Assembly: GCF_006543045.1 (NCBI RefSeq)
Contig: NZ_RBZW01000003.1
Location: 186,001 to 250,000, forward strand
From: Salinadaptatus halalkaliphilus
GTDB lineage: Archaea; Halobacteriota; Halobacteria; Halobacteriales; Natrialbaceae
Length of the DNA: 64,000 nt
Direction of reading: 5' to 3'
In this document: one piece after another, positions 10,937 to 49,067 of the stretch
Position numbering within the stretch: the stretch's first letter is position 1
How the letters are laid out: every line of letters starts with the position of its first letter
Made by a program: the position numbers and the translations under genes
The notes under the pieces: generated by a model
Seen by the model: the letters and a program-made list of their open reading frames with translations, nothing else
What the model was told of the DNA's origin: nothing
Databases searched by the model: none

Positions 10937-12028
10937 TCACTCGGCGCTCGCCGTCTCGCCGTCCGCCTCGCCCTCGTTCTCACGCCAGTCCTCGAGGTCA
11001 TCCTCGTCGGCGTCGTCGACGCGCTGTTCGTAGTACGCCATCGGATGAGGGATCCGTTCACAGAGATCGTCTTTGTTCACGCAGTCGCCGTAGGATTGCA
11101 TCGTCGCACACGAGGGGGGCGAGTACTCGGTCGGGGAGGTTTCGCCGGCGATGTGGTCTGTCTGGTAGCGGGTCATCTCCTCGCCGAACCCGGCGTTGAC
11201 CCGGTAGAGGTCGACGATCTGGTCGGTCGTCATCCCGATGCTCGTCAGGAAGGCCGTGATCGCAAAGCGGGAGTGGTGGGGCAGGTGTTCGCCCTTCTGA
11301 ATGTCGTCGAGCAGGGCCTTCATGCAGGGCGGAAAGAGGTCGGGGACGACCGTATCGATCTCACGCGTGAGCTCGAGGTCCGCGAGCACCTCGCGGACGG
11401 CCTCGACCTCGGCCTCGAGTTCGTCGGCGATGGCGTCGGGAACGTCGAAGGGGAGCCCGTCCTCGATCCGCGAACGGATGGCCTCCCGCAGAAGCGTCCG
11501 CAGTTCGGTCTCCTCGAGTGGCACCTCCCCGTCGGTCAGCGGTCGGTTGACGAGTCGCCACTCGTCGTCCCACAGGTCCTCGGCCAGCGGGAGGTAGGTG
11601 CCGACCGCGATCCGATACTCGCCGTCGGCCCGCTCGGTGACGGCGTCTGCGAGGTCGAACTCGTCGAGCAGTTCGGCGAGGTCGAGGCCGCTCGAGTCGA
11701 CGCTCTTTAACTCCGTCGTCGACTCGAGGTCATCGACGAACTGCTCGTGTGCGCGGTCGGCCTCGGCGCGGGCGTACTTGCGAACGAGGACCCGTTCGTC
11801 GACCAGCGAGACGAGGACGCGTGCGACCGGATACGAGAGCAACTCGATCCGAGCGTCGCGGTGTGGTTCGCCGGTGGTTCCCTCCTCGAGGGCGGTAATA
11901 ACGCGTTGTCGGGCGCGCTCGACGACGGCCTCCTCGCGCTCGACCACGGTTCCCAGATCGACCGCCGCCGTGGCGACGGCCTCGCGAGCGGCCTCGAGAA
12001 ACGGGTACCGGGCGTGCAGTCGCTGCAT
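10937..12028 (-). CDS. priL: DNA primase large (regulatory) subunit PriL
   Basis: A 363-aa archaeal/eukaryotic-type primase large subunit, which partners PriS to start DNA synthesis. The C-terminal Fe-S domain has cysteines at 235 (PPCMKALL), 307 (PPSCATM), 316 (GDCVNK) and 323 (DLCERIPHP), the four ligands of the conserved 4Fe-4S cluster. The N-terminal helical half (HARYPFLEAAREAV) binds the small subunit. Length is normal. The small subunit gene is not in this window. It lies just outside the downstream IS element. Confidence 0.93.
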   Translation of the reverse strand: MQRLHARYPFLEAAREAVATAAVDLGTVVEREEAVVERARQRVITALEEGTTGEPHRDARIELLSYPVARVLVSLVDERVLVRKYARAEADRAHEQFVDDLESTTELKSVDSSGLDLAELLDEFDLADAVTERADGEYRIAVGTYLPLAEDLWDDEWRLVNRPLTDGEVPLEETELRTLLREAIRSRIEDGLPFDVPDAIADELEAEVEAVREVLADLELTREIDTVVPDLFPPCMKALLDDIQKGEHLPHHSRFAITAFLTSIGMTTDQIVDLYRVNAGFGEEMTRYQTDHIAGETSPTEYSPPSCATMQSYGDCVNKDDLCERIPHPMAYYEQRVDDADEDDLEDWRENEGEADGETASAE

Positions 12029-12208
12029 CGGTACAACGATATTACTCCGACGGGATAAACGCGCTGGTTGGGTGGGACGCGTAGTGAACTACCCCACCCT
12101 ACTCGCTCACCGCTGACGCGGTTCGCTCCTTGAGGGTGGGGCTTCCTGTTTCCACGACACGCTTTGCAGACACAACGGTGTCCACAGGGAGCGCAGTCTC
12201 CACAGGCG

Positions 12209-12372
12209 TTCGAAAATCGCCGAGCGATTTTCGCAGCCCATCAGAATCTTCCGATTCTGAGGACGTTGATTCGGAGTGACCCACTCCTACATCTTCAAGA
12301 CCGCGAGAAAGAATATTCCACGCCGTCGCAAAATCGCACGCGATTTTGCTGCCCGTCAGACGTAGTCTGACG
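12209..12372. repeat. four short perfect palindromes within tnpB
   Basis: Perfect stem-loops of 7-10 bp with 2-5 nt loops occur at about 12210-12231 (CGAAAATCGC / GCGATTTTCG), 12240-12259 (TCAGAATC / GATTCTGA), 12330-12351 (GCAAAATCGC / GCGATTTTGC) and 12356-12372 (GTCAGAC / GTCTGAC). They occur in pairs, each pair inside a stretch of TnpB that has no counterpart in ordinary family members. Confidence 0.65.
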
Positions 12373-12638
12373 ACCGCATTCGCATCCCTATCCGCCTCGA
12401 ACCCACACGAGGGACACGAGTGTTCACGAACCCACAGCGGTTTGTCCGTCTTGACACCACAGGACGCGCATGCCTTCGTCGTATCTTTCGGGTCAACCGC
12501 GACGAAGTGCGTTCCCTCACGCTCGCACTTGTATTCGAGCATCCGAAGGAATGTCCCCCACGCCGCGCCTGCTCGATTCCGTGAGTTACCAAGGAGTTCG
12601 ACCAGCCCCTTCGCATCCAAGTCCTCAACAGCCACTAA

Positions 12639-12717
12639 TACGGTTTACTGTAAGTCGTTACCGCCGAAACCGCGACCCGTCTGCGGTTTCGCCGGTAAAT
12701 CGTTACAGCAATCCGTA
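12639..12717 (+). repeat. TACGG-family palindromic miniature element inside tnpB
   Basis: A 79-bp element. The left end is TACGGTTTACTGTAA, the right end is TTACAGCAATCCGTA, and the two are inverted repeats with 13 of 15 matches. An inner palindrome is built on CCGCCGAAACCGC / GCGGTTTCGCCGG. It is flanked by TAA at 12636-12638 and 12718-12720, a 3-bp target duplication confirmed by the restored tnpB frame when one copy plus the element is removed. Confidence 0.85.
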
Positions 12718-13521
12718 TAAGTCGTACTCGGTGGCGTAGTAGTTCGACAACTTGTGGAGGAAGTCTCGTCGCTTTCGCTTGAGATTGGCGTGTCGTTCGG
12801 CCACGACCTGCCGTTGTTTCTCCCAATTCGCAGAGCCGTGTTTCTTCCGCGAGAGGTCACGTTGTGCGCGTTCGAGTCGTTCGCGCTCGTCGCTGAAGTC
12901 GGGACTTTCGATGGCGTACCCATCGGTGTCGTGGGCGTACTTGAGAATCCCCACGTCGATACCAACGACCTTCTCGGGCGTCTCTGGTTTTTCAGGCGTG
13001 GTTTCCTCCACGTCGATGCCAAACGTGGCGTACCATTCACCCGTGGGTTCTCGTTTGACCGTGACCTGTTTGATGGTCGCATTCTCGGGGATGTCTCGGT
13101 GGAGGTGAATCGGTATCTCACCGATCTTGCTCAACCACAAGACAGGCCGACCACTCGTATTCTTGAGTTCGAAGCCGGACTGGTTGTAGGTGAGCGACCG
13201 ATACTCCCGAGGCGGTTGCCACTTGAGCATTCCCACGGCGCGTCCGTTCTCCTTCTGTGCTTTGAGCGTGGAGAGGTTGTCGTAGACGCGCTTGACGACC
13301 ATCTGGAGGACTTTCGAGTGTACGTCAGTCAGGTCGTCCCACCACGTTTTGAGGTCGGGGAGTCGTCCCTGAACCTCGTAGCGGGCGGGAATGTCGTCTG
13401 TCTCGTTGAGCAGGTAGAGGACGTGATTGTACAGTTGCCTACAAGTATCGACGTGGTTCAGAAGCGTCTCGGTGAGGGCTTCTGGCGGGTTGAGTCGATA
13501 CTTGTAGTTGTACTGCATAGT

Positions 13522-13668
13522 CTACTCGTCTGAATCGGGTTCGGAGATGCGGACGACTTTTACGTCGGCTCCGCGCCAGCGTTTGGGAACGATGACGTGG
13601 GCGCTGTTGCCCGACGGTTTTGCCGTTCCATCGAGGACTTCCTCGCCTTCGATTTCAAATCTATCCAT
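13522..13668 (-). CDS. DUF2080-type transposase-associated small protein
   Basis: A 48-aa protein, MDRFEIEGEEVLDGTAKPSG then NSAHVIVPKRWRGADVKVV. It reads like a SpoVT/AbrB-type DNA-binding strand pattern and matches the small DUF2080 proteins that precede haloarchaeal tnpB genes. It ends 3 nt before the tnpB start, so they form one operon. An upstream in-frame Met at 13686 is less likely. Confidence 0.75.
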   Translation of the reverse strand: MDRFEIEGEEVLDGTAKPSGNSAHVIVPKRWRGADVKVVRISEPDSDE

Positions 13669-13775
13669 CACCGATGTATAGACCATGGATAGACATAAAG
13701 ATGGCGGTGGGCCTGTGGGCCGAGTGTCGCGGGTGTATGAGAACCGTGCGGCGCTGTATCCCCTCCCTACTGCGT

Positions 13776-13827
13776 CCTCAGAAATCGGAGATTTCTGATG
13801 TGCGAACGAGAACGAAGTTCTCGTCAA
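13776..13827. repeat. pair of short palindromes at the IS left end
   Basis: TCAGAAATC-GGA-GATTTCTGA (about 13779-13799) is a perfect 9-bp stem with a 3-nt loop. It is followed by an ACGAGAAC / GTTCTCGT stem (about 13804-13825). They are of the same style as the hairpins inside tnpB and may be structural ends of the IS1341-type element. Confidence 0.55.
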
Positions 13828-14030
13828 CGCTACTCGGTCGCTTCGCTCCCTGCGTGGCTCCTTGAGGAAGGGGACTTAGCGCCTAATTCCAGTTAATGGC
13901 GGGTTACAGCGGTAGCGAGGCGAAAGCCCACCCGTTCCCGGGTGGGATGACGCCAACGACGGATGTGTACGCTCGAGGAGCGGTCCGTCGAAGGGTCGAT
14001 TTCAAGAGGATCCGACACGTCGACTCGAGT

Positions 14031-14933
14031 ATGCCCCGGGCTTCGAGCGACGGCGTGTCGATCTACTACGAGTACGACGAGCACGAGGGCGACGGCGCGC
14101 CGGTCGTCTTCGTGCAGGGACTGGGTTTCGGCCGGTGGATGTGGCGCTGGCAGCGCGAGGCCGTCGCGGACCGCCACGACGTGATCGCGCCGGACAACCG
14201 CGGCACCGGTCGCTCGGAGGCCGGTCACCCACCACTCGTCGCGCGGCTGCCCGGAACAGTTCGCGGACTCGTGATGCTCAAACTCACCGGCTATTCGGTC
14301 GCGGGCATGGCCGCCGACCTCGAGGCCGTCCTCGAGGACGCGGGCGTCCGTGACGTCCACCTCGTCGGTGCGAGTCTCGGCGGGATGATCGCCCAGCAGT
14401 ACGTACTGGAGTACAACCGGGCGCAGACGCTGTCGTTACTGTGTACGACCCACGGCGGGCCCGACGCCGTCCCCATCCCCGAGGCGACCCAGGAACACAT
14501 CTTCGACGTCCCCTCCGGAGCGAGCGAGCGTGAGACGATCCGTCATCGTATGCGACCCGCGTTCACCGACGCGTTCACCAACCGGAACCCCCACCTGATG
14601 GATCGCATCATCGAGTGGCGACTCGAGCAAGACGCCGACGACCCGGCCCGCGAAGCACAGGCGGCCGCCGGCCAGGCCTTCGACATCGGCGATCGCGTCG
14701 ATCGGATCCGGGTCCCGACGCTGGTCGTCCACGGAACCGACGACGGCGTCGTGCCCTACATGAACGGCCGACTACTGGCCGAGAAGATTCCGGACGCACG
14801 ACTCGAGACGATCGAAGGCGGCTCACACCCGATGTACATCGAAGATGCACCCCGGGTCAACGAGGCGTTACTGTCCTTTCTCGCGACACACGATCGGGCA
14901 CTCGAGACGGCCGAGACCGAGCCGTCGCGTTAG
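14031..14933 (+). CDS. alpha/beta hydrolase
   Basis: A 300-aa alpha/beta-fold hydrolase. The oxyanion strand reads VVFVQGLGFGRWMW and the loop DNRGTGRSE follows. The nucleophile elbow is GASLGG near residue 120. The acid is in VVHGTDDGVVPY and the histidine in EGGSHPMYIE. Substrate unknown; esterases, haloperoxidases and lactonases look alike here. The start at 14031 was chosen because the preceding frame from 13896 is IS border DNA and MPRASSDGVSIYYE fits the family. It converges on the HalOD1 gene, overlapping it by 4 nt. Confidence 0.85.
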   Translation: MPRASSDGVSIYYEYDEHEGDGAPVVFVQGLGFGRWMWRWQREAVADRHDVIAPDNRGTGRSEAGHPPLVARLPGTVRGLVMLKLTGYSVAGMAADLEAVLEDAGVRDVHLVGASLGGMIAQQYVLEYNRAQTLSLLCTTHGGPDAVPIPEATQEHIFDVPSGASERETIRHRMRPAFTDAFTNRNPHLMDRIIEWRLEQDADDPAREAQAAAGQAFDIGDRVDRIRVPTLVVHGTDDGVVPYMNGRLLAEKIPDARLETIEGGSHPMYIEDAPRVNEALLSFLATHDRALETAETEPSR

Positions 14934-17040: not shown

Positions 17041-17069
17041 TACGGATTGCTGTACCGATGTCCCGGCGG
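17041..17069 (+). repeat. fragment of a TACGG-family miniature element
   Basis: TGA then TACGGATTGCTGTACCGATG and CCCGGCGG, then again TGA. Only the first third of the element is present, placed directly ahead of a full copy. The TGA triplets on either side are consistent with nested insertion. Confidence 0.55.
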
Positions 17070-17072
17070 TGA

Positions 17073-17152
17073 TACGGTTTACTGTAAGTCATTGCCGGCG
17101 CAACTGCGACCCGGGCGGCGGTTGCGCCGGTAAATCGTTACAGCAATCCGTA
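17073..17152 (+). repeat. intact TACGG-family palindromic miniature element
   Basis: An 80-bp element with ends TACGGTTTACTGTAA and TTACAGCAATCCGTA. The inner palindrome pairs CCGGCGCAACTGC with GCGGTTGCGCCGG. Flanking triplets TGA (17070-17072) and TGA (17153-17155) form a target duplication. It differs from the copy at 48988 at only three of 80 positions. Confidence 0.85.
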
Positions 17153-48910: not shown

Positions 48911-48972
48911 TACGGTTTCCTGTACGTCGTTTCCAGCGCAACAATCGTGGGACGGATATTGGTACATCGGTA
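48911..48972 (+). repeat. degenerate TACGG-family element at cofH stop
   Basis: Begins TACGGTTTCCTGTACGTCG immediately after the cofH stop TGA and ends ACATCGGTA near 48972. About 62 bp; the inner palindrome is decayed. Confidence 0.5.
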
Positions 48973-48987
48973 TCCCAGGCCGTCTGA

Positions 48988-49067
48988 TACGGTTTACTGT
49001 ACGTCATTGCCGGCGCAACCGCGACCCGGGCGGCGGTTGCGCCGGTAAATCGGTACAGCAATCCGTA
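48988..49067 (+). repeat. intact TACGG-family palindromic miniature element
   Basis: An 80-bp element with ends TACGGTTTACTGTA and TACAGCAATCCGTA, inner arms CCGGCGCAACCGC / GCGGTTGCGCCGG, flanked by TGA at 48985-48987 and 49068-49070. It is 77 of 80 identical to the copy at 17073-17152. Confidence 0.85.

What the first reader, a model, noticed from the sequence alone, without database searches (positions are those of the whole stretch)
12099..13518. tnpB disrupted by a miniature element between RuvC-I and RuvC-II motifs
Removal of 79 bp plus one TAA restores YDL-VAVEDL exactly, so the insertion is recent and precise. It separates the RuvC-I Asp from the RuvC-II Glu, so the RNA-guided nuclease is broken while the IS remains. 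A small element parasitising a larger mobile element is a clean example of nested mobility and lets the target duplication be proved internally.
Basis: seen in the sequence. Interest (0 to 1): 0.6.

Follow-up and report, generated by a model that had tools for sequence, protein, structure and literature searches.

The report
MITE plus hairpin inserts in tnpB
A 79-base non-coding mobile element has recently jumped into, and broken, the nuclease gene of a larger haloarchaeal transposon that also carries three smaller double-hairpin inserts, two of which lie inside the gene without breaking its reading frame.

Summary
A 79-bp MITE (window 12639-12717) sits between two TAA copies inside an IS1341-type tnpB, between the RuvC-I Asp and the RuvC-II Glu. 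It brings an in-frame stop and a frameshift (82 bp with the duplication). At least 41 places in the same genome match it; all 30 distinct copies read have an identical 3-bp TNA duplication and 18 are identical in sequence. An uninterrupted copy of the same IS on a Haloterrigena alkaliphila plasmid (96.7% identical) lacks it. MITEs in IS605-type elements are already described in haloarchaea, so this part is ordinary.

The same copy carries three more insertions, each a 51-57-bp double hairpin: one in the left-end palindrome and two in frame in the 3' third of tnpB, all absent from the H. alkaliphila copy. A covariance model finds relatives in 109 of 121 genomes of the family, mostly in tnpB or IS605-type DNA. 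They resemble REP dimers or Rickettsia palindromic elements but fail CGTC-REP criteria. How they move is unknown.

The parts
12084..13896 (-). IS1341-type (IS200/IS605 family) element without tnpA: left end, DUF2080 gene, tnpB, right end
   Evidence: End points are where conservation with three uninterrupted copies stops in alignment A3; approximate
12099..13518 (-). tnpB, split by the MITE into parts of 271 and 178 aa
   Evidence: 409-aa uninterrupted homologue L178
12639..12717 (-). 79-bp MITE carrying an in-frame TAA (12703-12705)
   Evidence: absent from three aligned relatives
12636..12638 (.). target duplication TAA, copy 1
12718..12720 (.). target duplication TAA, copy 2
12326..12376 (-). 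double-hairpin insert, site A, 51 bp, in frame after RuvC-III (DANA^AWN)
   Evidence: structure; empty in three relatives; also in L037 and L054
12211..12267 (-). double-hairpin insert, site B, 57 bp, in frame (SEST^PVET)
   Evidence: filled in several other tnpB genes
13775..13829 (+). double-hairpin insert, 55 bp, inside the left-end palindrome of the IS
13522..13668 (-). DUF2080 transposon-associated small protein
   Evidence: E 0.002, below Pfam cut-off; annotated as such in the relatives
12955..12957 (-). RuvC-I Asp188 codon
   Evidence: aligned with a solved TnpB-like chain
12624..12626 (-). RuvC-II Glu codon

Best explanation
A non-autonomous DNA transposon (MITE, 79 bp, TNA target duplication) inserted into CTTAG at codon 267 of tnpB of an IS1341-type element. 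Shown: the anatomy, the duplication, the copy number and the uninterrupted relatives. Inferred: a DDE transposase acting in trans moved it; the stop and frameshift abolish the RNA-guided nuclease; the IS ends and the 3' RNA region could still be used in trans by a TnpA or another TnpB. The same IS copy separately acquired three double-hairpin elements, which the gene probably tolerates because those in the ORF keep the frame and fold as free-standing hairpins beside an otherwise unchanged 3' structure.
For: Matches at at least 41 places and IR pattern 170 forward/173 reverse against 0/0 reversed-pattern controls; 30 of 30 copies with identical 3-bp TNA flanks, mostly CTNAG context; alignment with L178 (96.7% identical over 86% of the query) shows all four insertions as clean gaps; tnpB under purifying selection, dN/dS 0.10-0.12 for four window-relative pairs; 22 of 801 and 8 of 261 nt differences from L178 in the two tnpB parts; apart from the MITE with one duplication copy and the two double-hairpin inserts, tnpB has the 409 codons of L178; RNA folds of the 3' region share the same 3' hairpins with and without the inserts.
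Against: No parent transposase was found: none of nine PF01609 loci carries the inverted repeat within 3 mismatches. Relatives do not read TTA at the target codon. Loss of nuclease activity was not tested, and the C-terminal part begins with a GTG that could in principle reinitiate. Sites A and B are also filled in L054 (90% identical) while the closer L178 is empty, so gene conversion, or loss in L178, could replace two independent recent insertions there.
Confidence: 0.94

Rival explanations
1. The 79-bp segment is an intervening structural or regulatory part of tnpB (intron-like or a programmed split), not an insertion.
For: It is a stable hairpin and lies at a boundary between conserved motifs.
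Against: Same segment elsewhere in the genome outside tnpB with duplications; absent from the tnpBs aligned; no exact copy found in the 84,980-species collection, in which the own genome may be left out.
Confidence: 0.02
2. The MITE split is tolerated: the two parts are made separately (271 aa, and a GTG-started C-terminal part) and reassemble into a working TnpB.
For: A GTG lies directly after the duplication, and both parts are otherwise open.
Against: No evidence of a start signal was sought or found; the cut separates catalytic residues of one RuvC fold; the insertion is young, so open parts are expected anyway.
Confidence: 0.04
3. The three double hairpins are not mobile insertions but IS-specific structural parts inherited within IS lineages and lost from L178.
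For: They recur at a few homologous positions (left end, site A, site B) across genomes; L054 shares A and B.
Against: Clean presence/absence between close copies at several different sites and in both orientations; also in a different DDE-type transposase (L158); tandem copies.
Confidence: 0.25

Closest known systems
MITEs in IS605-type transposons and PATEs of Haloquadratum walsbyi (PMC3119063, passages read)
   Same: Non-coding element with terminal inverted repeats and target duplication inserted in an IS605-type element of a haloarchaeon; the paper counts 17 MITE insertions in IS605-type transposons and 13 in PATEs
   Different: Sequences not compared; here the target is inside the tnpB ORF, with uninterrupted relatives and three other inserts in the same copy
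SMR-A elements of Haloquadratum (PMC3119063)
   Same: Small transposase-free elements that mainly hit IS605-type transposons and PATEs, within their palindromes
   Different: SMR-A are about 110 bp with terminal inverted repeats and mostly outside the ORF; the elements here are 51-60 bp, two separate hairpins, and often in frame in tnpB
GTAG/CGTC-tagged REP dimers and Rickettsia palindromic elements (PMC3733652, first part of Results and passages; PMC10969869 passages)
   Same: Short stem-loops in dimers, a CGTC-like tag, in-frame insertion encoding about 20 aa, insertion within palindromes
   Different: Bacterial; CGTC-REP stems start with A-T and end in short tails; no preference for transposons stated in what I read
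Double-hairpin elements of mitochondrial DNA (recalled; search listing only)
   Same: Two adjacent hairpins as a mobile-looking unit (recalled)
   Different: Organelle DNA; I read no text of these papers

Membership tests
MITE | Short, non-coding, terminal inverted repeats | tested here: met
   79 bp; arms of 40 nt 80% complementary as reported, which include flanking bases
MITE | Target-site duplication | tested here: met
   30 of 30 distinct copies, TNA
MITE | Many near-identical copies | tested here: met
   at least 41 places (only 40 of 249 first-look candidates were scored)
MITE | Ends shared with an autonomous transposon | tested here: inconclusive
   nine PF01609 loci of the genome lack the ends; other transposase families not tested
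IS1341-type / TnpB | TnpB domains and RuvC D/E/D | tested here: met
IS1341-type / TnpB | No own tnpA | tested here: met
   none of the three Y1_Tnp matches of the genome lies on contig C41
CGTC-tagged REP dimer (for the double hairpins) | CGTC tag at the outer ends of both hairpins | tested here: not met
   GTCC invariant at one end of 18 aligned elements, but the other end is mostly AACG, not GACG
CGTC-tagged REP dimer (for the double hairpins) | Stem 8-9 bp starting with A-T pairs, loop 4-5 | tested here: not met
   stems mostly 8-10 bp starting Y-C-A-G in hairpin 1, loops mostly 3
SMR-A of Haloquadratum | About 110 bp with terminal inverted repeats | tested here: not met
   51-60 bp, two separate hairpins
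Terminal-only PATE (52 bp, fused IS605 ends) | The two hairpins equal the near-terminal palindromes of an IS605-type element | tested here: inconclusive
   not those of this IS; other IS605 elements not compared

The most novel reading that the evidence does not exclude
Haloarchaea of this family carry a family of ~50-60-bp mobile double-hairpin elements, stems kept paired by compensatory change and loops hypervariable, that live mostly inside other mobile elements. They enter tnpB in frame in the 3' third that probably also makes the guide RNA, so they add protein residues and free-standing RNA hairpins to an RNA-guided nuclease without breaking it. One plausible mover is the Y1 TnpA of IS200/IS605 elements, as proposed for REPs: double hairpins lie beside two of the three tnpA-like genes here, and another sits inside one of them.
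Probability: 0.5. Interest if true: 0.62.

Novelty: new member of a known kind. Interest (0 to 1): 0.4.

Why it matters
The MITE gives a clean, recent case of one mobile element disabling another's RNA-guided nuclease, with an uninterrupted relative at 96.7% identity. The double hairpins, if mobile, would offer a natural set of in-frame insertions into TnpB and its guide-RNA region, and a test of whether haloarchaea have REP-like elements specialised on transposons.

Tried and rejected
Autonomous parent of the MITE: the nine PF01609 loci lack the repeats; the ends 960 bp apart on C32 belong to two separate MITEs, not an IS. Other transposase families were not searched. Rfam on 11500-14500: only two matches, both below gathering score. 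The idea that the element lies at the same codon in many tnpBs: rejected. Double hairpins as chance: 3 in the window, all at this IS, against 2, 0, 2, 0, 1 in five Markov-generated windows, so the count alone is weak; location, sequence similarity and empty sites carry the case. Filing them as CGTC-REPs: tested and not met. L091 and L095 look TnpB-like by eye, but Pfam gave nothing for the pieces tested, and nothing for L133.

In-frame bias: lengths at site B are multiples of three in 16 of 16, elsewhere in 50 of 72 (Fisher p 0.009); the rows are related by descent and 'elsewhere' includes coding sites, so this is suggestive only. The 88-element catalogue came from a regular expression that demands CGTC and parts of the stem, so those letters are conserved by construction; some hairpins of diverged elements were mis-parsed into short stems (e.g. 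'GA', 'TC').

Full report
WHAT IS THERE. The window is part of a 4.5-Mb draft haloarchaeal genome (G000, contig C41). The N-terminal part (271 aa) matches OrfB_IS605 and HTH_OrfB_IS605, the C-terminal part Cas12f1-like_TNB; a DUF2080 gene lies upstream. The uninterrupted relative L178 matches solved TnpB chains such as 8bf8 (E 9e-35).

THE MITE. A 79-bp palindromic segment (12639-12717) sits between two TAA copies. It brings TAA in the tnpB frame at 12703-12705, and 82 bp in all shifts the frame. The own-genome search gave 46 rows, 41 distinct places by my count, since five rows are the opposite strand of a place already listed; only 40 of 249 candidates were scored, so this is a lower bound. 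The IR pattern with up to two mismatches has 170 forward and 173 reverse matches against 0 and 0 for the reversed control, so diverged relatives are common. All 30 distinct copies read have identical 3-bp flanks (TCA 16, TGA 12, TTA 1, TAA 1), mostly in CTNAG; 18 equal the window copy and 12 differ at one base. No exact copy was found in the 84,980-species collection, in which the own genome may be left out; diverged copies at roughly 80-90% occur in many genomes of the family. I read this as a recent burst in this lineage.

UNINTERRUPTED RELATIVES. Of 61 genomes searched, 43 had a match to the tnpB-plus-MITE query; the closest tnpB matches (83-90% identical) stop at query position 796-800, where the MITE begins. 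Five printed sites read straight through. The best relative, a Haloterrigena alkaliphila plasmid, is 96.7% identical over 86% of the query, with 22 of 801 and 8 of 261 differences in the two tnpB parts. Pairwise dN/dS between the window and four relatives is 0.10-0.12, so the gene was under selection until recently.

THREE MORE INSERTIONS. Alignment with three named relatives shows three further clean gaps: 55 bp in the left-end palindrome and 51 bp at DANA^AWN (site A), both empty in all three, and 57 bp at SEST^PVET (site B), empty in two and filled in Halorussus halophilus. Natrinema caseinilyticum has one of its own at another left-end position. Each is two hairpins with a short spacer; they are the only three such pairs that the script found in the window (five Markov-generated windows gave 0-2). 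Each is flanked by a short direct repeat containing CG. Sites A and B keep the frame. In the predicted fold the site-B insert forms two free-standing hairpins and the remaining 3' structure is the same with and without the inserts. That this region belongs to the guide RNA is an inference from the relative position of the RNA in Halobacterium (PMC12558985, passages).

HOW COMMON. Eighteen aligned elements gave model R1. In the own genome 12 matches have E < 1e-3: 8 loci carry TnpB by HMM and 2 carry IS DNA by BLAST; one more (L093) shows the IS left end by eye, and L091 looks TnpB-like by eye but has no Pfam match. In the family 109 of 121 genomes have a match at E <= 1e-5. Of 69 loci read from that search (29 given by the tool, 40 picked by me), 46 carry TnpB and 3 IS DNA, against 1 and 0 of 29 MITE-centred control loci. 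The remaining 20 include left ends of this IS type and palindromic contexts of unknown kind (L169 gave no match to the expression used), and L158, where a 57-bp element lies in frame in a DDE-type transposase (Pfam rve_3 E 1e-6). TnpB ORFs L075, L136 and L146 carry the element in the opposite orientation, also in frame. Loops vary: 37 different loops and 23 parsed stems in hairpin 1 over 88 elements, most frequent loops GGA, GAA, TTC.

MECHANISM. For the MITE: cut-and-paste by a DDE transposase in trans is the established mode for MITEs (general knowledge); the parent was not found. Consequence: the RuvC-I Asp is separated from the Glu of RuvC-II and the Asp of RuvC-III. The genome has 27 TNB matches, 22 of them in open frames of at least 350 aa, so loss of this one leaves others. 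For the double hairpins: weak R1 matches (E 1.2 and 5.4 genome-wide) lie beside two of three Y1 TnpA matches, inside what looks like a right-end palindrome, and another double hairpin lies in the 5' part of one of these tnpA genes, which has a stop. That is a lead to TnpA, not proof.

KNOWN OR NEW. MITEs, SMRs and PATEs inserted in IS605-type elements are described for Haloquadratum (PMC3119063, passages). REP dimers in frame in ORFs are described for bacteria (PMC3733652, first part of Results and passages). Searches for haloarchaeal in-frame palindromic elements or REPs listed no paper on them that I recognised: 0 papers; listings; of these I opened PMC3119063, PMC3733652 and PMC10969869; the library holds open papers only.

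VERDICT. The finding is right and, as stated, ordinary; the double-hairpin elements within the same coordinates are the part worth following.

Noticed in passing
window 12211-12267, 12326-12376, 13775-13829: Three double-hairpin inserts in the same IS, two in frame in tnpB; see report.
   Followed up: yes
window 17041-17152 and 48911-49067: Further inverted-repeat ends of the same MITE superfamily, some with extra ends close by.
   Followed up: no
L106 900-1800 (G000:C28 near 209636): An IS200-type tnpA whose 5' part is interrupted by a double hairpin with a stop, and whose right-end palindrome holds another.
   Followed up: partly
L037 (C42) and L031/L054, site A: The same 51-bp element sits at the same codon in TnpB proteins whose N-terminal parts are only 43% identical, which suggests gene conversion or site preference.
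   Followed up: partly
L075, L114, L149, L174: Two double-hairpin elements joined end to end, in opposite or the same orientation, sharing a CG.
   Followed up: no
88 elements: Loop triplets often occur together with their reverse complements (GGA/TCC, GAA/TTC, TTT/AAA), as if loops flip within the palindrome; not tested statistically.
   Followed up: no
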